Part shown: positions 346 through 48,152 of the stretch, piece by piece
Layout of the letters: each line of letters opens with the position of its first letter
Position numbering within the stretch: position 1 is the stretch's first letter
Assembly (NCBI GenBank): GCA_907165275.2
Contig: OU015659.1
Location: forward strand, 2,088,501 to 2,152,500
Length of the DNA stretch: 64,000 bases
Reading direction: 5' to 3'
Origin: Zygaena filipendulae
Lineage: Eukaryota; Arthropoda; Insecta; Lepidoptera; Zygaenidae
Position numbers and translations under genes: made by a program
Notes under the pieces: model-generated
Seen by the model: only the letters and a program-made list of their open reading frames with translations
The model's database searches: none
Told to the model about the DNA's origin: nothing

Positions 346-1902
346 CACACATCAAAAGTGTCTAGGGATCAAGCATTTTTATGCGGATTTCTTGAGATTG
401 AGATGTGGCTTTGTAATAAATTTATGATTTTATAAATTTATATGGATCCTTTTTGGTGCATTACATAATTTGAATCAGGAACTGTCAATCAAATTCGAGT
501 AAAAGATGAAAATCAGCTGTCAATATTTTCCCTATAAAAACTTCAACGCATTGAAGACATTATTAGTGCTACTGTTTCCCTACTACTGATTAAAACCAAC
601 GTTATTATGGAGCGGCGACGTCATTTAAGCAGGGAAGAAATGCTCAGAGCCGTGGGAATGATAGAAGCTGGTTCCCGGCAACGTACTGTGGCTTTAGCTC
701 TGAATACAAGTCAGAGTGTTATCAGTCGACTTTGGACACGTTACCGAAGCACTGGTACCGTGGCTGAGCGCCATGGAGGACGGTATCACTGCACCACACG
801 GAGACAAGACCGATACATTCAAATCTTAACTCGAAAGGGCTCCAACAATAACCGCCATGATGTTAGCCGTGAGGCTTCATCACTCTTCAGGGAACTTAAT
901 TAGCGACCAAACAGTCAGAAACCGCTTGTATGAAGTGAACCTTCATTCCCGAAGACCGCTACGGGTACCACCTATAGCAATGCACAATCGTAGGATTCGA
1001 TATCAATGGGCTCTTGAACACAGAAATTGGGCAGAAGAACAATGGCGTTTCGTGTGCTTTTCTGATGAGTCTCGTTTTGGTATGAGACCGGATACAAGAC
1101 GTATACGACACTGGAGAACCCCTGGACGCCAACAGCGATTAAAATCCTGCCAGGAAGTCCATCCTTATAGTGGTGGAACCATCATGGTATGGGCGGGTAT
1201 TTGGATCGGCGGAAGAACTGAGTTGATTTGGATCAGAGGCAACCTCAACGCTCAAATTTATGCTGAGACGATTGTATCAGACGTCATCGCTCCTCTACAA
1301 GTGCAAATCGGTCCCTTATTTCAGTTAATGCATGATAATGCACGACCGCACACCGCAAGAGTTGTAAGACAGACTCTCGCCGCAGCTAACATCAATGTCC
1401 TGCCCCGGCCTGCTCAGTCGCCAGACTTGAACCCGATTGAGCATGCATGGGATATGCTACAGAGAAGAGCTCTGCCGAATATGGAGGGTATCCAGTCGCA
1501 AGAAGACCTAATTTTGTTGTTGCAACGAACATGGGCGGCCATTCCACAGCGTGATTTGGATGAACTCATTTTGAGTATGCCAAACCGATGTTCTTGTGTT
1601 GTTAGTGTTCGCGGTAGAAACACGGATTATTAATTGTTTAAGTTACCCAATAAAATTTTAAAGAAAACTGTTATTTCAGTCTTTTTTTCGAACTTTTATG
1701 TTAGTGGTTCAAATGTCAAAAATCCCTTTATTAGGAAAATGGCAAATTTCTTTATTAATGCAAAGGTGACTTGGTTTATCGTTACTGTGACAAACGAAAA
1801 CACTTTATTTGATGAATCCTTAAAGAAAATTTTAATTAATATCAATCAGGAGAAAAGTTATTGCAAAAATATATGTTGATCCCTAGACACTTTTGATGTG
1901 TG
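346..1902 (+). mobile_element. Tc1/mariner (DD34E) DNA transposon, frameshifted
   Basis: A Tc1-family cut-and-paste transposon of about 1.56 kb. It is flanked by TA at 344-345 and 1903-1904, and perfect terminal inverted repeats of about 27 bp begin CACACATCAAAAGTG at 346 and end at 1902. It carries one transposase gene (next entry). The TIRs are short and perfect, suggesting fairly recent insertion, but the coding frame is broken. It lies in the presumed second intron of Vps18, in the opposite orientation. Confidence 0.9.
607..1633 (+). pseudogene. Tc1 transposase, broken by one frameshift
   Basis: Transposase that would bind the TIRs and catalyse excision and integration. The first part (607-903, 98 aa) carries the N-terminal helix-turn-helix region, beginning MERRRHLSREEMLRA. 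The second part (857-1633) is one base out of frame and carries the DDE catalytic core: CFSDESRFG (first D), MHDNARPHTARV (second D) and SPDLNPIEHAWD (E). Exactly 34 residues separate the second D from the E, so it is DD34E as in Tc1. Similarity passes from frame 1 to frame 2 near 890-903, which points to a single one-base indel. The protein is otherwise undamaged. The frame change and the motifs are seen directly; family assignment is from established motifs. Confidence 0.88.
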
Positions 1903-7233: not shown

Positions 7234-8594
7234 ATCGTTTCCATCATTTGTTTTTTTTTTTCAACGTGGGATAAAATACTGAAAGATTCTAGTCAACTAT
7301 GTCTCAGACGCTGTATTTTAAAACTTCAGTATCGAATCGAATAAGTTCAATTTGACCGTCAACAGAATCACGTGTACTGTACCCTTCGCGTGTAAGACTG
7401 GCTGAAAATCTTGCATGCTCTTGACTGTATGAGTAGTATATGAAATAAACAATTTTAGATTCGATTTGGAAATTTTAGAATATTGGGCCTGATAAATACA
7501 TTGTCCACGTCAAATATTTTTTAATTTTTTATGTTAATACAGTGTGTATTCTATATTTTTTTTCTTTTTCAGATTTCCTTTTAAATTGGTTACTCTTATT
7601 AACTGGATAGCAAGCACTGGTCGTGTAAATTGGAAAACAAATAGCTATTCAAGGATTCGTTTCAAGCATTTCCCAAGCAGTTTCTTTCGAAAAACTAAAC
7701 TTAATTACAAAGAGTGCAGCTGGCGCGAACCAATAGCAAGCAATAATAATAATCGTTTCAAAAACCATAAGCCAAGCGCGCAACTTTTATGATGCCCTGA
7801 CGAGAAATAAGCTGGTTTGCTCATCCGTGCCGTGCGCTAAGTAACTTAAGTTCCAATAAAACGTTATTTGCACCTACATAGTATTCATTTCACTTGCCCC
7901 GCTTCACTACATAGTATAAAATAAAGTCGCTTTCTCTGTCCCTATATCCCTATGTATGCTTAAATCTTTAAACTACCCAACGGATTTTGATTCGATTTTC
8001 ACCAATAGATAGAGTTATTCATGAGGAAGGTTTGTAACTATATTTTATCCTGGAATTCCCGCGGGAACTCCGAAATTACCACGGGTGAAACCGCGCGGGT
8101 CAGCCAGTACATTATAAATCCCTTCGACACCATCAGGGATCGATGATTTATAGTTTATATACAAAACAACCTATCCTATAAAACTACATTTTACTTCCTA
8201 TAGCTTTTTCATCACCAAACAAGCTAAAACTCCTTGGAAATTGGAAATAAGTTATTTAGTGGCAATACTGGTAGTTTACATGTGTGCATAGGAAGAATAT
8301 CACTTTCTCTTACGCTATACGCGAATGCCTCGTCTAGTTCATTCTCCGTCTACGAGTACTTATAACTTCCTTGGTCAACAAAATGACTTTTATAATTTTT
8401 TTATCATTTATGACATTGTTGCCAATGTCACAATAATTTATTTTTGTTTACTCCTTTCGAAAAAAGCAAAAGAATCCAAGTCCATACAGCCTAGTCAGAT
8501 GTTTTCTTTTTGAAGTTATTTTAATGCATCGCGTCGGTGGGATGTATTTCAATGCTTTAATGGGACTTCTAGCAGTACTGGTCAGAGTTGAACT
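7234..8594. other. Noncoding repeats left of LTR palindrome
   Basis: No gene is seen. It includes one Helitron-type copy (7904-8107), a roughly 80-bp stretch at 8290-8372 that is an inverted copy of part of 5926-6070, and a scattered-repeat segment (8460-8594) related to 18460-18590, into which the LTR palindrome inserted. Confidence 0.5.
7904..8107 (+). mobile_element. Helitron-type repeat, second subfamily
   Basis: Starts TCACTACATAGTATAAAATA and ends in the shared CGCGGGAACTCCGAAATTAC plus hairpin block; the terminal CTAG is mutated to CCAG. The 5' half differs from the 3813-4011 subfamily and matches 57300-57485. Confidence 0.65.
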
Positions 8595-9022
8595 TGTGGC
8601 GTCCGCCACTCGTATTTTGTATATTTGTATGTACATATATTTCTCGTGTAATTCATTCGTCATCCGTTTTCATTGTTACTGTACATCCAAGCGGTACAAT
8701 GGAAACGGACCATTGTAAATAACACCATCTCTTTACCATAGTAACGCTTCAACTACGCATGTCCGGACAGTTCAGGCATGCGCAGTTGCCTAATGTCAGT
8801 TAGGTTTAAAAAACTCATCTCTGGTTATATCTTTGTTACCTTTCTATCCAAAATTTCAATTATCTTAATGTTTATATGTAGAGCGTGTTAGTGTGAATAC
8901 TTAGTTAAAATAATCTTCTTCTCCTCCTTCTGTACATAATTTGGTGAACAATTAGGTGTAAGAACTTTTGTGAATAAATTTTCCTCTGTACATTAAATAT
9001 CGTTTTGTGAATTTGTTATTCC

Positions 9023-9040
9023 ATCACGTCGGGGTCACCA
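9023..9040 (-). promoter_or_regulatory. Primer-binding site matching tRNA-Trp 3' end
   Basis: On plus it reads ATCACGTCGGGGTCACCA, the 3' terminal 18 nt of eukaryotic cytosolic tRNA-Trp including CCA (positions 59-76, stopping just before methylated A58). On minus it is the primer-binding site next to the LTR. Its last six bases also form the first six base pairs of the palindrome. Confidence 0.85.
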
Positions 9041-9276
9041 GTTTGGTGGATGAGGATTAGTGTCGTCCGTTCGTGATGGAATAACAAATTCACAAAACGA
9101 TATTTAATGTACAGAGGAAAATTTATTCACAAAAGTTCTTACACCTAATTGTTCACCAAATTATGTACAGAAGGAGGAGAAGAAGATTATTTTAACTAAG
9201 TATTCACACTAACACGCTCTACATATAAACATTAAGATAATTGAAATTTTGGATAGAAAGGTAACAAAGATATAAC

Positions 9277-10653
9277 CAGTCTAACGCAACTAGGAACAAA
9301 TTAAATTTTGTTCGTGTTTAGCACTCATTTTTCTTTTTAATTTTTTTTTTCCATGGCATCAAAGATGGCCTCACATGCTATTTCAGTCTTTTATCTCTGA
9401 ATCTTTCTTACAATCTGTCATCTGTTTGTCATGGCGACGCATGTTGTTATTTGGGAAAATAATTGTGTGATTTTTAAAAATTTTGTGTGATTTACGCTTT
9501 GAAAAGTGCAGTGTGACTATTAAAAACTATTTTCTTGTGATTGGGTAGTGAAATAGCACCGATTAGACGGTGTAGTACGTATGTAATTTGTAGAAAAAGA
9601 TAGAGTCGACAAAATTTAAATAAAAGGAAATTTATCACGAAATTTCCTATAGATGAAGACCGGTAAGTACAACTTGAGTAAAGTAATAAAGTATTTTGTT
9701 CTCTTCAGCTATCAGCAAGACTAAAATAATACACTATCTTTTTGAAATGAGAAAAAATATTTGCATGTTTGTAAACCATAGTGATGTAAATCTTTACTAT
9801 CGATAAAGTGAGTCGATAAACTTTAATGAATGATGCTGTTATAGTGAATATTTTGGAATATTTTTGTATAGCTGCTGCTGCGTATACTTTTTTCATTACT
9901 TACTGCAGTTTTCATTAAGTATTATGATCGTATTGTAATAAAGTGAACCTCGTCTTCTGTATAAAGAACTATATTATACTCTATCTTGTTTCTAAGTGTA
10001 CTTGCATGATTGATAGATATTTTAATTTCAGATGTCGACAATGGGTAAAAAATATTGGAAGTGATGACTTAGCTTACATTCCAATCGAAAAACTTCACGA
10101 TATAAAATATGTCTGTGGAGATGTAAGGAACGAATGTCGGAAGATAAACGAAAGTTTTTCGCTTTCGGAGGATATTTCTACCGATAATTTAAACAAGGCT
10201 CAACAAGGAGGCACTGCGAAGTAAATCATTTACTTTCCCAAATAGGTTATTTAATTTTGACATAAAATGTAAATGTAATTTTTAAAGAGAAAATAAATAT
10301 CTATCTATCTAATAACATCATCATCATGACCAACTAAAATATTGGAATAATAATAAATAAATAAAAATAATAATTTATTGTTTCAATTTTACGACAAATG
10401 TTTTCCCCCGTTGTAGATTTAATTCACCTGGTATGAAGCCCACGATGCTCTAATGATAATTTATCGATATCGATTTAATCAGGAACTACATGTGGCCATC
10501 CCTATTGTTCTCGTTGATGTTGGTACCCATGAGTTATGAAGTATTTTGACATTTAAATTTTCGCTGTGTTGGTATTTCTGGGTCTGCTAAATGGATTCCA
10601 AAACAAAGTAAGGAAGTCCCGTCTCTTAAAACGTAGTGATTACCTTCTCTCTG
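9277..10653 (+). mobile_element. P-element-like insertion with THAP relic
   Basis: A 1377-bp insertion in the right arm of the LTR palindrome, flanked by exact 8-bp copies of GATATAAC (9269-9276 and 10654-10661), the duplication length of P elements. The ends begin CA and finish TG (left CAGTCTAACGC, right TTACCTTCTCTCTG). It contains a two-exon THAP-like relic and no recognisable catalytic domain. The last 22 bases of its right end recur three times around 60.38-60.67 kb. Confidence 0.7.
9627..10224 (+). pseudogene. THAP zinc-finger fragment, two exons, degenerate
   Basis: THAP domains are DNA-binding zinc fingers found in P-element transposases and host proteins. The first piece ends ...KFPIDEDR at 9661 with donor CCG/GTAAGT. 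The acceptor tttcag at 10026-10031 opens CRQWVKNIGSDDLAYIPI, the conserved THAP core (FPxD, then CxxW), and the ORF runs to a stop at 10224. Upstream of KFPIDEDR the frame has a stop and no clean zinc-binding CxxC, so this is a broken fragment. No RNase-H transposase core follows. It is probably an internal deletion derivative of a P-like element; a captured host exon is the alternative. Confidence 0.55.
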
Positions 10654-10890
10654 GATATAACCAGAGATGAGTTTTTTAAACCTAACTGACATTAGGCAAC
10701 TGCGCATGCCTGAACTGTCCGGACATGCGTAGTTGAAGCGTTACTATGGTAAAGAGATGGTGTTATTTACAATGGTCCGTTTCCATTGTACCGCTTGGAT
10801 GTACAGTAACAATGAAAACGGATGACGAATGAATTACACGAGAAATATATGTACATACAAATATACAAAATACGAGTGGCGGACGCCACA

Positions 10891-11372
10891 AACTGTTGAT
10901 CCCAATAAGACGCTTTATGAGACGTATAGGAAAACGACAAATTCAAGGAAAAGCAAAAGAAGCTAAGTAAACAAAGTCAAGAAAGTAAGGTATATTTTCA
11001 GTTTCCAAAAACTTTAAACAAACTCGTAGTTTACGACTCAAGAAGGAAAAGTAAAGCCCGGAACACACTATTGTACTGGTGTATCGTGTACATCGTGATT
11101 TGTGTTGCGCCTGGAACCGATAGCGTGTAATGTATGCGGTGTAGTACATGCAAGGTTTCTATAAAAAAAAGGAATTTATTGAATAAAAAAATGACAATCA
11201 ACATTTAATATTATTACATATTTTACAAACAAAAAATAAAACATCAAAATTAATAATATGATATTTGAAATTAATCAGTTACAATTACTTATATACTACG
11301 TTGTTTAGAAAAAAAAAAGAACTAGATAAAAAAAACAATCACTAATTATTTTTCTCACACGATTGCTATCTC
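10891..11372. other. Noncoding, downstream of MYSM1-like gene
   Basis: No gene is seen. The left part is the continuation of the scattered repeat split by the LTR palindrome; the right part, 11160-11372, is AT-rich and includes what must be the 3' UTR of the MYSM1-like gene. A minus-strand AATAAA candidate (TTTATT on plus) lies near 11168-11173. Confidence 0.45.
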
Positions 11373-36823: not shown

Positions 36824-39800
36824 TCACACTTTGTTCAGCAGAGTGGCGTGCTCTCTGTTACTGTTGATGTCGAGGCTGTTCTGCCGCCGCTTGGCTGTTT
36901 GGTCCTGTCTGCGCTTCTTCCTGTCACTAAGGATGATGATCACTAGTATTATCGCGATGATAAGCAACACGATGTTGCAGCTCAACAGAATTATGTTTTG
37001 CGTGGTCATTTTCGGGATAAGCGATGGCCCTTCGGTCGATGATGACATCTGAAAAAAGAAAAAAAAACTTATTTAGTAAATGTCAGCGGTTTCACCGCTT
37101 AAAACTCCCTTTCTGTCGTAAATCATGAAAACCAATTGAATCGAAGGCGTAATTAATTAATTGTATTTGGACATAGATAAGCAATAGTGTGTTAACCCAC
37201 ACTGGAGAAATTTTGATTAAATTAAAGTTTTAAAATTATAGCCCCATTTTGTGTCAACATTTTTATGTTCAATATTTAGTTACATATTTACTCAATGTAA
37301 TAAGGTAAACACATAATTAAAAAACGTTTTTTAACTCTCAATAAATCGTTCTGAATTAATAACTTCATTTTGTGGGTTAACATGTTATTGCTTATCTGCG
37401 TCCATTTGTAATATTGTGTATAGTTTTCATATTCACGTTTTTTTTGACAAAATCCGACTCGAAGGACCATTATTTAATTTCTTAGGGTATATTTTTTACT
37501 TTACTTTTATTAGTTACATGTGAGATTAAATTAGCTAGGGCTCAAGAATAAGTCTCGTTTCACCCCTCGGCTTCATCCACGTTAATTTCGGAGTAAAAAA
37601 AGTCCTTTTCTGTACCCTAAATGTATGCAAAATTCATGATAATCGATTGAGAGTAGTTAAGGCGCGAAAAGGTAACAGATAAATGGACAGACAGAGTAAC
37701 TTTCGCTTTTACAATATTAGTAAGGATGCACGGATACGTATACTTTCTGGTATCAGTTGTCTGGCACCTACTGCACGCTGTGGTAAGTTCGCGACAAGAT
37801 GGCGGTGTAAGTAGGTATATGATAATGTCCAAGCATTTTTACTATTATCGTTATTACTATCGCTTGTCTGAAAGCTATGTAACTACTATATATTATGGTG
37901 TACTATGTTATACTAACGGAATAGAGCGGCTCGCTGCCGGCGTAGTCGTCTGTGCACAGGTCGCGGTCCGTCCAGTTGTACCAGTGCACCATGCGCACGC
38001 CGCGCAGCGCGCGCGGGTACTCGCACCTGTGCCATAGAGAATAGAGTTAAGTAGGCACGTTGTCGGGGTGTGAACATCGGAATTCTATTTACCCCTTGGA
38101 ACACGGAGTTCCACTTTCCAGTTTTGCTTAGTTTCCAGTTTCCACGACACAAGCTTATAGCTTAGTGTGGGATGAAATAGAAATGTGTGTTGTGGAGTGT
38201 CATTATTATTTTCCTATAGAAAAAAAATGTGTGCGTGGGCGAGACTTGGTAAGGTAAGGTACCCGTGAAGTTGGCGTGGGGTGGAGTGTTCTTTGCCGTA
38301 GTGGTTAGTATTATTTGCCTGAGGTCCGCGAGCAGGCGCGGCTGCCGGCGGTACAGCAGCGGCAGCAGCTCGTCGAGCAGCCACTGCATGGCGCACGAGC
38401 AGTCCCACGGGTTGCGCTGCAGGTCCACGCCCTCGCGCAGCGCCGCCCACTGCAGCGCGGCGCGCGGCACGCGGCTCAGCTGGTTATTGCTTAAGTCCAA
38501 CTGGGAAACAATCCTTACTGTTAATTGGACGCAGATAAGCAATAACATGTTAACCCACAAAATTAAGTTATTGATTCAGAACCATTTATTGAGAGTTAGG
38601 GAACGTTTTTTAATTATGTGTTTACCTTATTACATTGCTTAAATATGTTAATAAATATTGAACATAAAAAATGTTGACACAAAATGGCGCTCCTACTTTT
38701 AAAACACGATTTACTCAAAATTTCTCCAGTGTGGGTTAACACACTATTGCTATCTATGTCCAATTATAAATGCGAAAGTGAGTTTGTTTGTTTGTTACGC
38801 TTTCACGCCTTAACGGCTTAACCGATCATTATGCAATTTTGCACACACATTGTCAGAGGTAGGTACAGAGGAGGACATAGGCTACTTTTTATCCCGGAAT
38901 CCCCACGGGAACTCCAAAATAAACGGGGCAGAAACTACATTAAATTTTGCATACTACCTATTACACGTTGTCAAGGGTAGGCACAGAAATAAATATAGGG
39001 TAGTAAGTACTTTTATCTCGGAATAACCGCGGGATCTCCGAAACTAACGTGGGTGAAACCGCGGGGAACAGCTAGTACTATTATAAATGCGAAAGTGAGT
39101 TTCTTTGTTATGCTTTTACGGCTCACCGGCTTATGCGATCATCAGGAAATTTTGCATACGTTTTTATCCCAGAATCCCCGCGGGAACTCCGAACTTAACA
39201 CGGGTGAGACCGCGGGGAACAGCTAGTATAGTTTATATACCTTAATCACTACAATTTGACACACGCTAGGTATGTCGTTGCTCGGAAATGGCGCATCATA
39301 ACCATGTCCCGCCCAAATTGTGCTTTATTTCCATGCATTTTGTATGAAAATTGAATGGAATAGAAAGCCACCCGTGCCATGTCCGCGCCCGACGCCAGTG
39401 GCCTGCGCCTACGGTTCATGTTCGGACACTCACCATGCACAATGGTGTTCCATCGAAGGCGCCAACAGACAACTCCCTCAACGTCCTCGAGTTGGACAAG
39501 TACAGAGCCAAGCAACTCTTCGAATCGCTACCTTCCTCTGGGCTTCGCCCCATCACGTTGCTGAACGCTTTCTCGTCGACCTTCACCAGATTGTTCAATT
39601 CGTTCATGTATAAATTTTTCACAGCAATTATGTTCTTAAAATAAACAATTTTAATGGGGTTGCCATCTAAACGAAGCTCCTTTAAGTTGGGAAAGTTAGA
39701 ACTGCTCAGACTCTCCGGTATCTCTTCCAGCAAATTGTAAGATACGTCCAAACTGAATAGTTTTGATAGTTTCTTTGATACGTTTAGTTCTTTGAGTTGA

Positions 39801-42800
39801 TTCCCTCCGATGTTTAATACCTGAAATAAAAAATAAATATTTAAGTAGGTAGGTAGGTACAGTAAGAATACGGGAAACTAAACACATTGTATACTAACCA
39901 GCTCAGGATTGTTTGTTCATCAAGACGTTTACTTATTGGTACCAATCACAAAAATATTATGTGGAGTAAAGGAAAACAAATTAGTAATCTGTAATTGCTT
40001 AAGAAGAAACGCGAGCTATAAGACATTGAAGAGGCCATCCAACCTTACCGGACTGATTATTCCTATGTGGTAAAATAGACGAAGAAAATAAGGTAACTAA
40101 TAAACAAAAAAAATCTCTCACCTCTAAATTGTCGTAATCAATATTTTGTGGCATAAATTTCGTTAGTCTGTTGTACGAGACATCGATATAATGTATACCG
40201 CTAGGGAACGTCGGCCAGTGGTGCATTGTGTTGATCTTAAATATGGCTATTTGAAGGGAGGGTGGCAGAGCGAAAATGAGCGTTATATTGTTCTGCGCAA
40301 GGTTCAACTCCCGTAAATTGGTACAGGCCAAGAATAGCTCCTCTTCGATGATTTCTATTAGGTTGTTGGATAAATCTAAATATTCACTGGAATAAAAATA
40401 ATTAGCTTAGTGATTATTGGAACGAAGTTCCTTATTTTAATTTATTTTTTAATTTAATGTTTCAATTATTTCGAACCATGATGAGTTATTAGTTTATTGT
40501 TCATATATAAAAACAAACATCATTTTTCGTTATAATATGGTTTCTGCAAAGTACTTACATACTATTGTTGATAGGAAAAGAATCTTTCATCACAGAACGT
40601 ATCCTGTTGCCATTCAAACTTAACCGCTTTATCCCTTTCAAGGCATCATCATCTGATCTCTTCAGCACCATATCATAGATGGCGTTTTTGCTCAAATCTA
40701 TATCTTCCAAAGCTATCATCGGCTGAAGCGCCCCTAAAGGGATCTTCTTCAACTGATTACCTTGTAAATTAAATCTTTTCACCTTGGTTAAAGACCTAAA
40801 ATCGATTGGATTGAAGTCCTCAAGTTTGTTATAGGATAAGTCTAGGTCTTCTAACAACTCAATGTTCGTGAATAGATCCGGCGTGATTTGAGTGAGCTCG
40901 TTCAGTGAGAACGATAGTTCGAGTAGACTCGGCAGGTCACTGAACGGGTCGGGCCAGTACATCCTGATTGCATTATTGGTGAATTTCAATGTCTCTACTT
41001 CAGAATTCGGTGGCAACCTGAAATGACAGTGGTAGTTCCATTAATGGGCATGTTGACTAATTTTTATTTTTTAGTCCGTCTTGTAGATTATTAAAAAATA
41101 TTAGACACGTATTTTTTCTTTTTTTACGTAATCAAAAAATAACGGCGATATATTGAGTTGAAATTTCGCGTGACGTCACTATTCTGACAGTTTGTATGGC
41201 GGTTTTGCGGTTAGTGACGTCACGACCTCCTCATCCTAAACTTTAATGCGCTTTATCTCTGTATATTTTAATTTATTTAAAAAAGCAAAAAATACTTGTC
41301 TATTGTTTTTGAATTTTCTAACTGACGGACTAATTAGAATTTTGATTTTCAAAAGTAGTCCACATCACATTTAAATAATTTAAATAATTTGGCTGGCTCC
41401 ACTGGTGTTTAAAAAGTGCGCTGGCGCAGTGTGGCCAGCTTCGACAGTATACAATATGTCCGTTCACTAGGATTAGTCACTCGGCGAGTTTCTTGGCTCT
41501 TATCAATAAGCGAAGCCCTTTGTATAGTGTGGCTTTAGCCTAATTGTTCTCAGACCACCGATGTCATTAACCGCGGCTTGAAAAAACCGCGAATTGAGTT
41601 GTGTAAACATAATTTTGCGAGTTTATTATATGATATGGTTTGATTGATGGGACGTATGTATGTACCTACCCTCGCTATATTGTTGAACATGGAAGACACT
41701 TGGCGCATTAGCCTAGTTCGAAATCTTTTATCTGTCAACTTTGCGAATATTTAATATTTATACATCTATTTATAGCCATGAACTGGCGGCACAGTTTAAA
41801 GTGATAAGGTTTCTTGGTGATATAAGAGAAATAGGTGAACATTCTACTTATATTTTGCTACGTCGGGACGATGGTTCATAGCTATTTTAGTTCTCAAGTA
41901 AATCATTAAAAATTAAGGCGTGTGAAACCGCGGGGAACAGCTAGTAAATAATAATAACAATGTATTTATGCATTGATAATGAGGGTCAATTAATTATTGG
42001 TCATGCAAAATACAATGGCACCACTCCCGCCTCGATAAGGCTCTCCCCATACATATCGATACCAGCATACTCGCATTAAGCCGAACGACCGTCGCGATAG
42101 AACGTATACGAGGGGAGACGGGGGAGACCCTTATAGATCAGCGTCGGGCCCCGGTTCCCGGCTTATGCTGAGCTGGTTGCCTTTTTGTTGCGACGCGCTG
42201 GTTGTGCTTTTTTTGTTATTGCATTATTTTGTCGTAACAAATAAAGTTCATTTCATTTCATGCAGGAGCGGCGCGGGATTTTGTGAATAGGAAACTGGCT
42301 CTGGACGGATTAGAAAGTACAGGTAGCTAAGTAGCTTATGTTAATAGAATATCAACTTTTATCCGGGTACGATAAAGAGTTCGTCACGAATCATGAAATT
42401 CGTGCAGACGAAACCGCGGACGAAATCTATATTTCTGTAGGCAAGATAATAATGGGAATGTTCGTTAGTCAAGGCCCGAGTAAGCAGTACCTACGAGTAT
42501 AAAATAATGATTATCGAGCATTGTCATACCTAGGTAGGTAATTAATTTCGTAAGATAAAGCATTAATTGATTGCTAACGACTTCCAATCTTTGAATGAAT
42601 ACCAGCTAGCTAACTACCATAAAAAAAATTTTAGTTAAACTAGTATTATAATGTCGTCTTCTTAAGAACACTTTCTTGATAGCACCTACAGCCTACACCA
42701 AGATAGACAACCGCCCCGGTGTTAAACATTTTGGGCATTTTATCAGAATTTAGTAATTAACCTTAATTGCTTATACAAATATAAGTACGACACGTAAGAG

Positions 42801-45278: not shown

Positions 45279-48086
45279 CTAATATGTTATAAGATCTATA
45301 GCCATTATATTTAATAATTTTACCTTCACGCCATACATTTTATGTACATCTTTTTTAAACCAAATGTTTTGACCAATTGCAAACCCTTTCCTATGTCTAG
45401 TTCTTTTATTATAATTAATTAAGTTACGATTTACAATCTTATTAAATTGTGACTGAGTATTAATATTTAGCTGTGGTTTTAAATACTGATATGGAACTAG
45501 CAATTTCGTTTTTAAATTTCTATTCATTAATAGTTGAGCTGGTGAAAAATCTGTACCAGAGACAGGCGAAGATCTGTATTGAAGCAATGCTAACCTAAAA
45601 TCAGTCTTGTCTTCAAAGCATTTAGTTAATATTTTCTTACTTAATTGTACAGCCCGTTCTGCCATGCCATTTGACTGTGGATATCTTGGACTCGAGAAGG
45701 TAAACTTAAATCCTAACTCAGAGGCAAATTTTTTACATTCCCTTGATTCAAAAGGCACATGGTCTGATACAATTTCACTTGGAATTCCAAAATTTGAAAA
45801 AACATCTATTAAACAGTTTATTACACAAGCAGCACTCTTATTATGCATTAATTTAATATCAACCCATTTTGAAAAATAATCCACAATTACTAAGTAGTTT
45901 TTATTTCTATATTCCATGATGTCAATTCCTAATTTAGAAAAAGGTAAATCAGGTATATCATGAGGCAACAACGGCTCTTTAATATTATTATTTTGATATG
46001 TTTGACATACAAAGCATTTTCTTAAGTAATTTTCTATATGGTCATCAATTTTAGGCCAGTAATAGAGAGTTCTTGCCAGTTGCTTCATTTTAGACATACC
46101 TAAATGACCTTCATGAAGTTTATTCATTATAGACATCCTTAACGACTTGGGTATTATTAATCTAGATTTTAAAAATACTAAACCCTCATCTGTGGTTATA
46201 TCAGCTCTAAATTTATAATAATATTTTAAATCATCAGGGACATCTTTTATAGTGTCCGGCCAACCATTAATAGTCAGCTGTATGAGTTTTAATAACTCAT
46301 CATCCTGTGAAGTTTTTAATATTAACTCACTTTTCTGCTCCTCTGTACACTGCAAGTAATGAGCGAGACCTACGCAGTGAATAACTTCATACATATACGA
46401 GTCATCTGTATCTTTAACATTCAAGGAAGAGCGAGAAAGTAAGTCAGCTATGAACATTAATTTTCCTTTTAAATATGTAAACTCAATATCATATTTTAAT
46501 AATTTTAATTTTAATCTTTGTAGTCTGGGCGATGGCACATCATGAATATGTTTCTTTAAGAGACTTTCCAATGGTTTGTGATCATTTAAAACTTTACACT
46601 TCTGACCATAGATAAAATAGTGAAATTTTTTAGTAGCCCATACTACACTTAATAATTCCTTTTCAATTTGTGAAAACTTTTGTTCTGAAGATGTGAGACT
46701 TCTAGAAGCAAAACATACAGGTTTGCCGTTTTGAAGTAGGCAACATCCTAATCCATCTTTTGATGCGTCACATTGTACTACGATAGGGAGTCTACTATTA
46801 AAATTCTGTAAAATGGGTGCCTCAGTTATCATTTGCTTAATATTATTGAACACACTTTCATGTACTGAGGTCCACAACCATGTTACATCCTTTTTTAATA
46901 ACAGGTGTAGCGGTGATGCAATATTTGCCATATTAGGAATAAATTTTCTTAAGTAATTTATCATTCCAAGAAATATCTGTAAATCTTTTTTATTAGTGGG
47001 ACTTTTAATACTGGTGATGGCATTAACCCTTTCAGGATCTATTTGCATGCCATGCTCTGAAAATATATGTCCAAAATATTTTACTTCCTTTAATTTATAT
47101 TGAAATTTTTTCTCATTAAATCGAACATTATGAATTTTTGCACGCTCAAATACTTTATTTAATATTGCATCATGCTGAATTTCTGTTTCGGCAGCTAATA
47201 ATAAATCATCGCAATAAATGATAACACCAGGTATATCTCCAAAGGCATTTTCACTATACCTTTGAAATATCTCCGGGGCTACTGATAAACCAAAAGGTAA
47301 TCTTAAAAATTTATAACATCCGAATGGACTATTAAATGTACACAAGTCAGTTGACTGCTCACTGAGCTTAATATTATAAAATCCATCGGAGAGGTCTAAA
47401 ACTGAAAAGTATTTTTTATTACATAATTTAGGTACTATCTCATCTAATGTAGGTATCAAATGATGTTCCCTTATTAATACTTTATTTAGATCTTTAGGGT
47501 CTAAACAAATTCTTAAAGAACCGTCTTTCTTTTCAATTATGACAAGGTTACTAACAAAACTAGTTGGGTGTTCGACCTTAGCGATTACTTGGTGATCCTC
47601 CAGAGACTTCAGCTTCTCTGCTAGGCGCGTCATCAGTGCGTTAGGCACTCGTCGCGGGGGCCTCACTATAGGGTCCACTCCTGGCTGAACGCGTAACACC
47701 AATGGGTTTTTAAATTCACCCACACCCTGAAAAAGTTGTGCATTCATATTAATAATCCTGCTTTTATTATTACATTCACTTTCAGTTTTGACCATATTAA
47801 TATTATTATTATTTAATAGTTTTAATTTTATTAGTGATTTTAATCCTAGGATCGGTCTGGCATTTTCTTTTATTACTAGAAATTCTGACAGAATGTTGTC
47901 ATCATCATTCCTTGAAAATACTCTTAATATGACCTTTCCAATTGGCATTAATTGCCCACCTCCGAAGACCTCAATTACTGTTTTTGCCTCAGATAATTTA
48001 ATATTTTGTTCATCATCGGCAATTTTCTTAAGATCATATAAAGAAATTACATTGACCTGCGCACCAGTGTCACACTTGAACAACAC
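45279..48086 (-). CDS. pol: Gypsy pol: protease, RT, RNase H, integrase
   Basis: An undamaged ORF of 935 codons, open back to the TGA at 48153-48155. In order: aspartic protease (CDTGAQVNVISL, residues 5-16), reverse transcriptase (FLRLPFGLSVAPEIFQR and active site IYCDDLL near residue 290), RNase H (VQCDASKDGLGCCLL), and integrase with an HHCC zinc region (HEGHLGMSKMKQL, then CFVCQTY) and a catalytic core (LGIDIMEY, VSDHVPFES, SNGMAERAV). Order RT-RNase H-integrase is that of Ty3/gypsy. There is no chromodomain and no envelope ORF after it. In the same frame as gag; see the readthrough finding. Confidence 0.92.
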   Translation of the reverse strand: MLFKCDTGAQVNVISLYDLKKIADDEQNIKLSEAKTVIEVFGGGQLMPIGKVILRVFSRNDDDNILSEFLVIKENARPILGLKSLIKLKLLNNNNINMVKTESECNNKSRIINMNAQLFQGVGEFKNPLVLRVQPGVDPIVRPPRRVPNALMTRLAEKLKSLEDHQVIAKVEHPTSFVSNLVIIEKKDGSLRICLDPKDLNKVLIREHHLIPTLDEIVPKLCNKKYFSVLDLSDGFYNIKLSEQSTDLCTFNSPFGCYKFLRLPFGLSVAPEIFQRYSENAFGDIPGVIIYCDDLLLAAETEIQHDAILNKVFERAKIHNVRFNEKKFQYKLKEVKYFGHIFSEHGMQIDPERVNAITSIKSPTNKKDLQIFLGMINYLRKFIPNMANIASPLHLLLKKDVTWLWTSVHESVFNNIKQMITEAPILQNFNSRLPIVVQCDASKDGLGCCLLQNGKPVCFASRSLTSSEQKFSQIEKELLSVVWATKKFHYFIYGQKCKVLNDHKPLESLLKKHIHDVPSPRLQRLKLKLLKYDIEFTYLKGKLMFIADLLSRSSLNVKDTDDSYMYEVIHCVGLAHYLQCTEEQKSELILKTSQDDELLKLIQLTINGWPDTIKDVPDDLKYYYKFRADITTDEGLVFLKSRLIIPKSLRMSIMNKLHEGHLGMSKMKQLARTLYYWPKIDDHIENYLRKCFVCQTYQNNNIKEPLLPHDIPDLPFSKLGIDIMEYRNKNYLVIVDYFSKWVDIKLMHNKSAACVINCLIDVFSNFGIPSEIVSDHVPFESRECKKFASELGFKFTFSSPRYPQSNGMAERAVQLSKKILTKCFEDKTDFRLALLQYRSSPVSGTDFSPAQLLMNRNLKTKLLVPYQYLKPQLNINTQSQFNKIVNRNLINYNKRTRHRKGFAIGQNIWFKKDVHKMYGVKVKLLNIMAIDLITY

Positions 48087-48152
48087 TTTTTTGTTGTTGA
48101 CTCTTAAGAGCTCAGTCCACTCATTTTTATTGAGATCTATTGAGCAGACTAG

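What the first reader, a model, noticed from the sequence alone, without database searches (positions are those of the whole stretch)
8595..10890. Integrated self-primed plus-strand strong-stop DNA (LTR palindrome)
Seen: two 434-bp LTR arms head to head, a 43-bp loop, AACT on both outer sides. The tract TGGTGACCCCGACGTGAT (minus strand) is the complement of the last 18 nt of tRNA-Trp, and the palindrome starts at its final base. Known: plus-strand strong-stop synthesis copies 18 nt of the tRNA primer and stops at methylated A58. Here the tRNA copy ends exactly at position 59. Its 3' end, CGTGAT, is complementary to ATCACG inside the same LTR (9023-9028). Inference: the strong-stop strand folded back through this 6-bp match, primed on itself and copied the LTR; the resulting double-ended LTR hairpin was then opened and inserted by integrase. 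I know of no described genomic example, though self-priming of strong-stop DNA is known in vitro for retroviruses.
Basis: partly seen in the sequence, partly recalled or inferred. Interest (0 to 1): 0.92.

Follow-up and report, generated by a model that had tools for sequence, protein, structure and literature searches.

The report
Integrated self-primed strong-stop DNA fossil
Two mirror-image copies of a retrotransposon's end, joined through an 18-letter stretch that matches a host tRNA and flanked by the same four target letters, sit in this genome; they are likely a half-finished reverse-transcription product that primed on itself or on a twin strand and was then inserted by integrase, and similar remnants with tRNA-matching tails occur elsewhere in the same genome.

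Summary
Observation confirmed: two 434-bp LTR arms (identical once a 1,374-bp nested insert is set aside), 43-nt loop, AACT at both outer edges, and an 18-nt tRNA-Trp complement whose last base starts the palindrome. The parent family is in the same genome: LTR starting TGTGGCG, 4-bp target duplications, CsRn1-like gag. In 8 of 8 copies whose 5' LTR runs on into the family's internal sequence, only the first 9 nt of the tRNA complement are present (0 of 9 matches beyond), so the other 9 nt were probably copied from the tRNA: the signature of plus-strand strong-stop DNA. The 483-nt strong-stop strand is predicted to fold with its 3' CGTGAT on U5 ATCACG, exactly the joint seen. A second palindrome exists in another family (L127: TSD GGTA; 4 of 4 fetched parents with an 8-nt primer site), plus other mis-primed tRNA-tailed ends (L111, L087, L124, L132) and tails reading on to tRNA position 38. 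Two corrections: opening a hairpin gives a single LTR, so I favour two strands priming on each other; and the tail end here is fixed only to nt 12-18 (exactly 18 in L111 and L087). Against: tailed LTR L021 could reflect an 18-nt sub-lineage, and no host tRNA-Trp gene was found.

The parts
8591..8594 (+). target-site duplication AACT, left copy
   Evidence: Sequence; family copies have 4-bp duplications (read by eye)
8595..9028 (+). left palindrome arm: LTR from its first base TGTGGCG to ATCACG (lacks the last 30 nt of the LTR)
9029..9071 (-). 43-nt unpaired centre: end of U5 (AACGGACGACACTAATCCTCATCCACCAAA), one C, and the first 12 nt of the tRNA complement
   Evidence: LTR end defined from family copies with TSDs
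9023..9040 (-). 18-nt tRNA-Trp complement TGGTGACCCCGACGTGAT; 9040-9032 (TGGTGACCC) is also in the 8 parent copies read, 9031-9023 (CGACGTGAT) is not
9072..9077 (-). ATCACG in U5, the inferred annealing site for the strong-stop 3' end CGTGAT
   Evidence: sequence; predicted minimum-energy DNA fold pairs them
9072..10890 (-). right palindrome arm (434 nt of LTR), interrupted by the nested insert
9042..10890 (-). complete 464-nt LTR (TGTGGCG...CCACCAAA), not counting the nested insert
9280..10653 (.). later 1,374-bp insert in the right arm, 11-bp duplication GATATAACCAG at 9269-9279 and 10654-10664; unidentified
   Evidence: genome search for it did not complete
10891..10894 (+). target-site duplication AACT, right copy
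   Evidence: Sequence

Best explanation
This locus is an LTR palindrome with a 4-bp target duplication and an 18-nt tRNA-Trp match at its centre, and it likely arose from plus-strand strong-stop DNA of a CsRn1-like retrotransposon whose tRNA-templated 3' tail mis-primed on U5 and was extended back to the LTR start before integrase inserted it. Steps. (1) Plus-strand synthesis started at the polypurine tract, copied U3-R-U5 and ran 18 nt into the tRNA-Trp primer (inferred; the 8 family copies read into internal sequence hold only 9 of these 18 nt). (2) The displaced strand's 3' end CGTGAT annealed to ATCACG in U5, on the same strand or on a second strong-stop strand (predicted fold; 6-nt joint seen). 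(3) Reverse transcriptase copied the LTR back to its U3 end, giving a strand with a U3 terminus at both ends (sequence seen; polymerase inferred). (4) The integrated form needs two open ends; I favour two strong-stop strands that primed on each other, giving a linear duplex with a 43-nt bubble (inferred, not shown). (5) Integrase inserted both U3 ends with a 4-bp stagger (AACT seen on both sides; enzyme inferred). (6) Replication resolved the bubble (inferred), and an unrelated 1,374-bp element later entered one arm (insert seen).
For: Arms, loop, TSD and 18-nt tract. Family LTRs, 4-bp TSDs, LTR end and 9-nt primer site; 8 of 8 copies read into internal sequence match 0 of 9 beyond nt 9. Gag with PF23055 read in L007, and a 491-aa ORF before the 3' LTR in L006 and L013. 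Predicted fold of the 483-nt strand pairs 3' CGTGAT with ATCACG. Second palindrome L127 in another family: two LTR ends, TSD GGTA, 18-nt centre, 4 of 4 fetched parents with only TGGTGACC. L132: LTR, 17-nt tRNA-like tail with one mismatch, then about 64 nt of its own LTR inverted, GACC on both outer sides (TSD and tail read by eye). Tails whose continuation was found elsewhere: L111 (8-nt match before the joint) and L087, where the last tail base differs from the donor, so the tail is exactly 18 nt; L124 (GTGAT). Five tails run past nt 18, four of them to nt 39 (tRNA position 38); 2 of the 5 carry A or G opposite position 58. Background: plus-strand synthesis stops before m1A58 after 18 nt and m1A58 is in tRNA-Trp (PMC13191261, passages); tRNA-tailed strong-stop DNA is a dead end that accumulates in Ty3 particles, and tRNA sequence is not inherited in Ty1/Ty3 (PMC5371799, section 2.2); CsRn1-like elements share a tRNA-Trp primer site and 4-bp TSDs (PMC2582038, passages).
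Against: Two LTR relatives are followed by a longer tRNA match and by no element sequence: L021 (18 nt, LTR 95.9%) and the older L028 (about 15 nt with changes); a sub-lineage that encoded 18 nt could have fathered the palindrome, and the LTR tree does not place it. Other families here encode all 18 nt. At this locus the tail could end anywhere from nt 12 to 18. A 28-nt pattern meant to hit tRNA-Trp genes found only the 5 tails, so the host tRNA gene is unconfirmed; repeat searches did not complete. L127's joint has 5 extra G and no microhomology. Several supporting loci are rearranged in other ways too: only about 10 nt of U5 precede the tail in L087, and L066, L124 and L055 have inverted U5 upstream, so their tails need not be plus-strand strong-stop DNA. 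L065 and L066 lie 3.9 kb apart and may not be independent. A 6-nt match in a 483-nt strand is expected about 0.1 times by chance. The fold had no shuffled control. No reads or empty allele were available.
Confidence: 0.83

Rival explanations
1. The parent was a sub-lineage that encoded all 18 nt of the primer site; the fold-back happened during reverse transcription, but none of the 18 nt had to be copied from a tRNA in that round.
For: L021 has a 95.9% identical LTR followed by all 18 nt; its second LTR half is the closest of the 24 compared (3 substitutions, others 4 or more); 18-nt sites occur in other families.
Against: L021 has no element sequence after the 18 nt and no second LTR within 8.7 kb, so it looks like a tailed orphan itself. 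8 of 8 copies read into internal sequence have 9 nt. L127 repeats the pattern in a family where 4 of 4 fetched parents have 8 nt.
Confidence: 0.13
2. A DNA-level fold-back after integration (replication fork reversal or break repair) at a normal 5' LTR made the inverted copy.
For: Microhomology-mediated fold-back inversions are a known repair outcome (recalled); the joint has 6 nt of microhomology.
Against: Both outer ends stop exactly at the first LTR base and both carry AACT; a repair fold-back would be expected to run into flanking DNA. The 9 tRNA-only bases are not in the 8 parent copies read. L127 repeats the geometry with its own TSD.
Confidence: 0.03
3. Assembly artefact: a hairpin read or a mis-joined repeat.
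For: Palindromes are prone to assembly error, and no reads could be checked.
Against: Only one arm holds the nested insert with its own 11-bp duplication; the flanks carry a matching TSD; another palindrome exists in a different family with arms only 94% alike.
Confidence: 0.03
4. Same product, but the primer was an 18-nt 3' tRNA fragment, so the strand ran off its end instead of stopping at a methylated A58.
For: 3'-tRNA fragments target primer sites of LTR elements (PMC7472051, start of abstract in the listing); the 18-nt end fits both.
Against: Five loci have tails running past nt 18, four of them to nt 39, which needs a longer tRNA; 2 of the 5 carry A or G opposite position 58.
Confidence: 0.06
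5. Same product, but strictly intramolecular: one strand folded into a hairpin, and the two-ended form arose when the hairpin was copied after one-ended integration.
For: The predicted fold is intramolecular.
Against: A hairpin offers one LTR end; a 4-bp duplication on both sides fits two ends better. Sequence alone cannot separate this from the favoured two-strand route.
Confidence: 0.3

Closest known systems
Plus-strand strong-stop DNA of retroviruses (HIV-1 type, 18-nt tRNA copy, stop at m1A58)
   Same: U3-R-U5 plus 18 nt of tRNA complement; L111 and L087 show the 18-nt end; longer tails stop next to position 37, as a minor HIV-1 product does (PMC13191261, passages)
   Different: Here it is found integrated in a genome as a palindrome or tailed orphan, not as an intermediate
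Ty1/Ty3 dead-end plus-strand strong-stop DNA
   Same: Short encoded primer site (length in Ty1/Ty3 recalled), tRNA sequence not inherited, tRNA-tailed strand is a dead end (PMC5371799, section 2.2)
   Different: There the tail is 12 nt; here up to 18 or 39 nt, in CsRn1-like families, with the dead-end strand captured in the genome
Self-priming of minus-strand strong-stop DNA in vitro (HIV-1 TAR)
   Same: A strong-stop strand folds back and copies itself (PMC4668388, passages)
   Different: That is the minus strand, in vitro; here it is the plus strand, found in a genome
Solo LTR
   Same: LTR sequence between 4-bp duplications without coding region
   Different: Two inverted LTR copies joined through a tRNA-matching tract; a solo LTR has one copy and no tRNA sequence
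CsRn1 clade of Ty3/gypsy elements
   Same: tRNA-Trp-like primer site, 4-bp TSD, Gag with a CWYH...C...C motif
   Different: Encoded primer match of this family is only 9 nt in 8 of 8 copies read into internal sequence

Membership tests
Plus-strand strong-stop DNA | 5' end at the first base of U3 | tested here: met
   Both outer ends start TGTGGCG next to AACT; family LTRs start there too
Plus-strand strong-stop DNA | runs through U5 into a tRNA copy absent from the element | tested here: met
   18 nt here; 9 nt in 8 of 8 copies read into internal sequence. Caveat: L021 carries 18 nt
Plus-strand strong-stop DNA | tRNA copy ends at position 59 | tested here: inconclusive
   nt 12-18 at this locus; exactly 18 in L111 and L087
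Self-primed product | 3' end complementary to an inner site and inverted copy from there to the strand's 5' end | tested here: met
   CGTGAT/ATCACG, then an inverted copy to the U3 terminus; same strand or twin strand cannot be told apart
Integrase-mediated insertion | fixed-size target duplication at intact U3 ends | tested here: met
   AACT/AACT; family TSDs are 4 bp
Solo LTR | a single LTR between the duplications | tested here: not met
   two inverted copies
CsRn1 clade (parent) | tRNA-Trp primer site | tested here: inconclusive
   TGGTGACCC matches the tRNA-Trp complement for 9 nt only; the choice of tRNA-Trp rests on the 18-nt tract of the palindrome and on a recalled tRNA sequence
CsRn1 clade (parent) | 4-bp TSD | tested here: met
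   read by eye
CsRn1 clade (parent) | CHCC Gag signature | tested here: inconclusive
   Gag of L007 holds CWYHSKFGSKATKCMKPC and PF23055; the signature was compared by eye with a recalled form
CsRn1 clade (parent) | position in a Pol tree | not tested
   no Pol phylogeny was built

The most novel reading that the evidence does not exclude
This genome holds a whole class of integrated strong-stop DNAs: LTR ends that carry a primer-tRNA copy and have primed on themselves or on other element strands. Their tail lengths (18, 33, 39 nt) and misread bases record, in germline DNA, where reverse transcriptase stopped on the modified tRNA-Trp, and they reveal the primer of families whose encoded primer site is only 8-9 nt.
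Probability: 0.7. Interest if true: 0.92.

Novelty: new variant of a known kind. Interest (0 to 1): 0.85.

Why it matters
If right, an intermediate known from test tubes and particles is preserved in a chromosome. It would show that self-primed plus-strand strong-stop DNA forms in vivo, can gain two U3 ends and is accepted by integrase. It makes an old question testable from sequence alone: where plus-strand synthesis stops on the tRNA, and whether tRNA sequence is inherited in animal LTR elements with short primer sites. Tailed LTRs could also be used to read primer usage from genome assemblies. Nine of my ten text searches bear on this (open-access PubMed Central only); no listed title or abstract start reported an integrated strong-stop DNA. 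One search showed 15 of 24 hits, 12 of 13 and 8 of 22; I read passages or one section of six papers, and subscription papers were not searched.

Tried and rejected
Tried without result. Exact 18-nt scan of viral contigs: 0. Gypsy element at 45-48 kb as parent: no LTR pair found around it and its integrase region is only 28% like the parent's, so rejected. LTR tree to choose between a 9-nt and an 18-nt parent: unresolved. Pfam on a candidate exon in the nested insert: 0 families. L126: inverted pair around a 39-nt tail, but no clean TSD, so not counted as a second palindrome. Orphans L021 and L072: no matching 4-bp duplication after the tail (read by eye), so how their tail end joined is open. 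tRNA-Trp gene: ARAGORN found none in the window, the 28-nt pattern hit only tails, and ARAGORN on the fetched loci printed nothing. First thought that all 18-nt matches would be fossils: rejected, since 62 of 87 loci have a sibling with the same continuation. Post-integration fold-back and assembly error: rejected as above.

Counting limits: of 122 places 100 were listed and 22 not seen. I read flanks for all 100 listed (98 newly fetched, of which 13 lie in one array, plus this locus and L021); 36 of them with +-250 bases only, two of which (L104, L115) were widened later. Of the 87 loci entered, 25 had no fetched sibling with the same sequence after the tail: 20 with tails counted as 18 nt, 4 with 39 and 1 with 33. 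For 5 of the 25 (L048, L081, L087, L111, L124) a donor was found from the first base on. Several of the other 20 may be single-copy families. L028, L132 and this locus were not in that set. Tails shorter than 18 nt could not be seen. L127's family has 16 places, of which 4 parents, L127 and L132 were read.

Full report
What is there. At 8591-10894 two LTR arms face each other: 8595-9028 and 9072-10890, with AACT directly outside both. The right arm is split by a 1,374-bp insert with its own 11-bp duplication; otherwise the arms are identical over 434 bases. The centre is asymmetric: on the minus strand the right arm runs on through the rest of U5 and into TGGTGACCCCGACGTGAT, and the last base of that tract is the first base of the inverted copy.

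The parent family. A search with the LTR found 45 places (a lower bound). Copies with target duplications set the LTR at about 464 nt, TGTGGCG to CCACCAAA, with 4-bp TSDs such as TACC, CAGA, CAGG, ATTC, GTGT and CTCC (read by eye). Six LTR pairs about 4.5 kb apart differ by 0 or 1 substitution, so the family moved recently. In L007 the sequence after the 5' LTR encodes a Gag with PF23055; in L006 and L013 a 491-aa open frame precedes the 3' LTR, and its middle is 28% like the integrase region of the window's other gypsy element. A tRNA-Trp primer site and 4-bp TSDs are shared traits of CsRn1-like elements (PMC2582038, passages). The palindrome has 3 bases private to it among 25 aligned LTR rows, two of them within the arms and so present in both; its place in the tree is unresolved.

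The key comparison. In 8 of 8 copies whose 5' LTR runs on into the family's internal sequence (L003, L007, L008, L011, L014, L015, L017, L019) the LTR is followed by C, TGGTGACCC and then TCTGTACCGG; none of the next 9 bases matches the tRNA complement. Gag itself was translated only in L007. The palindrome instead reads CGACGTGAT, i.e. tRNA-Trp through position 59 (tRNA sequence recalled; the 18 nt also equal the primer sites of other families here). The simplest source of those 9 bases is the tRNA primer itself. That is what plus-strand strong-stop DNA holds and what the integrated element would lose in a Ty1/Ty3-like cycle (PMC5371799, section 2.2).

The joint. The tail's last 6 bases, CGTGAT, are complementary to ATCACG in U5, and after them the strand continues as the complement of the LTR back to its first base. 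The DNA fold of the 483-nt strand predicts exactly this pairing as part of its minimum-energy structure (-45.8 kcal/mol; no shuffled control was run). Because the joint can slide in CGTGAT, this locus alone limits the tail to nt 12-18. The G of ATCACG, an A in most copies, is also seen in L004, L013 and L024, so it need not be new.

Other cases in the same genome. The 18-nt tract has 122 exact places; I read flanks at the 100 listed. Of 87 loci compared, 62 have a fetched sibling with the same sequence right after the tract, as ordinary primer sites should; one family alone has 21 near-identical copies. But L127 (C22:1,787,300-1,788,900) is a second LTR palindrome: outer ends TGTAGGAGAG, TSD GGTA on both sides, 18-nt tract in the centre, arms 94% alike. 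In its family 4 of 4 fetched parents (L128-L131) have only TGGTGACC and then TTAAAT. Its tail joins, after five extra G, to the complement of gag, and the inverted copy runs back through the 8-nt site and the LTR to the U3 end. L132, about 32 kb away, has an LTR followed by TGGTGAGCCCGACGTGA (17 nt, one mismatch), about 64 nt of its own LTR inverted, some 600 nt I did not identify, and a second LTR in direct orientation, with GACC on both outer sides (tail and TSD read by eye).

Mis-primed tails. After the tail, L111 continues as the complement of a coding stretch that I read by eye as integrase in L087; the donor has CGACGTGAC before the joint where L111 has CGACGTGAT. L087 likewise keeps the tail's T where its donor has GTGAC. 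In both the last base must come from the tail, so the tail is exactly 18 nt and its end was extended across a T-G mispair (the mispair is inferred). L124 shows GTGAT at the joint. L081 and L048 join in the orientation of the donor's own primer site, as a misplaced second strand transfer would. These loci are not simple: only about 10 nt of U5 precede the tail in L087, L111's LTR lacks its middle, and L124 has inverted U5 upstream, so some tails may come from other strands that also copied into the tRNA.

Longer tails. Five loci run past nt 18: L065, L066, L097 and L115/L126 end at nt 39 (tRNA position 38), L048 at nt 33. The base opposite position 58 is T in three, A in L066 and G in L115. Reverse transcriptase stopping before m1A58, and less often at a modified base 37, is described for HIV-1 (PMC13191261, passages). 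That base 37 of this tRNA is modified is recalled and was not tested; 37/38 is also where tRNA introns sit (recalled). L065 and L066 lie 3.9 kb apart and may not be independent. Four ends at nt 39 with different sequence after them fit a common stop.

How it would integrate. A folded-back single strand has one open LTR end; opening its loop gives an ordinary single LTR. A palindrome with two U3 ends and a TSD needs a two-ended duplex. Two strong-stop strands whose 3' tails prime on each other give just that: both ends are U3 ends and only the 43-nt centres are unpaired. Ty3 particles accumulate dead-end strong-stop DNA (PMC5371799), so a second strand may be at hand. This step is inference. 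A replicated hairpin is the main alternative.

What speaks against. L021 (C28) has a 95.9% LTR followed by all 18 nt, and L028 (C4) an older LTR followed by a decayed longer match; neither showed element sequence or a second LTR downstream (8.7 kb and about 6.5 kb read). I read them as further tailed orphans, but they could be relics of a sub-lineage with an encoded 18-nt site. So of 10 family copies whose LTR is directly followed by a primer-site-like stretch, this locus left out, 8 have 9 nt and 2 have more. The host tRNA-Trp gene was not found by a 28-nt pattern that should hit it if the recalled sequence holds, and later searches did not complete. No reads, no empty allele and no second individual were available. 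On re-checking my calls I replaced 'gag-bearing copies' by what was read (8 copies into internal sequence, Gag in one), and lowered confidence slightly.

Known or new. Self-priming of minus-strand strong-stop DNA in vitro is known (PMC4668388, passages). Plus-strand strong-stop DNA with an 18-nt tRNA copy is textbook. My searches of open papers listed no integrated, self-primed strong-stop DNA (lists partly capped). I therefore call it a new variant of a known kind: an aberrant reverse-transcription product, with relatives across the genome that make it more than a curiosity.

Noticed in passing
L077 (C12:5131976-5137503): Tandem array: 13 copies of a 208- or 215-bp unit made of about 190 bases of an LTR's 3' part plus the 18-nt tRNA-Trp complement, like a satellite built from tailed LTR ends.
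   Followed up: partly
L066 (C9:5704289), L124 (C28:3950256), L055 (C5:10058512): Inverted copies of the LTR's U5 end directly upstream of U5 plus tRNA tail, as expected if minus-strand strong-stop DNA folded back and copied itself into the tRNA (read by eye).
   Followed up: partly
L110 (C22:9597095): Complement of internal sequence and of part of the primer site switches into the last 35 nt of an LTR plus the 18-nt tract (read by eye).
   Followed up: no
L126 (C24:5230000-5231800): Inverted pair of about 258-bp arms around a 39-nt tRNA tail with G opposite position 58; no clean target duplication.
   Followed up: partly
L128-L131 and the window's own family: Two families have encoded primer matches of only 8 or 9 nt, as recalled for Ty1/Ty3; the window's family also has LTR pairs with 0-1 substitution.
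   Followed up: partly
L019 (C18:1906009-1909428): Two family LTRs starting only 963 bp apart: a short derivative with a 9-nt primer site.
   Followed up: no
window 9280-10653: 1,374-bp insert with 11-bp duplication in the right arm; no Pfam family on one candidate exon.
   Followed up: partly
window 45279-48152 (-): 957-aa open frame with reverse transcriptase, RNase H and integrase domains of a different gypsy element; no LTR pair found around it.
   Followed up: partly
window 538-1633 (+): Tc1-like transposase in two overlapping frames; Pfam was run on the second.
   Followed up: no
window 38162-41040 (-): Leucine-rich-repeat coding stretches, Pfam LRR in the two frames tested.
   Followed up: no
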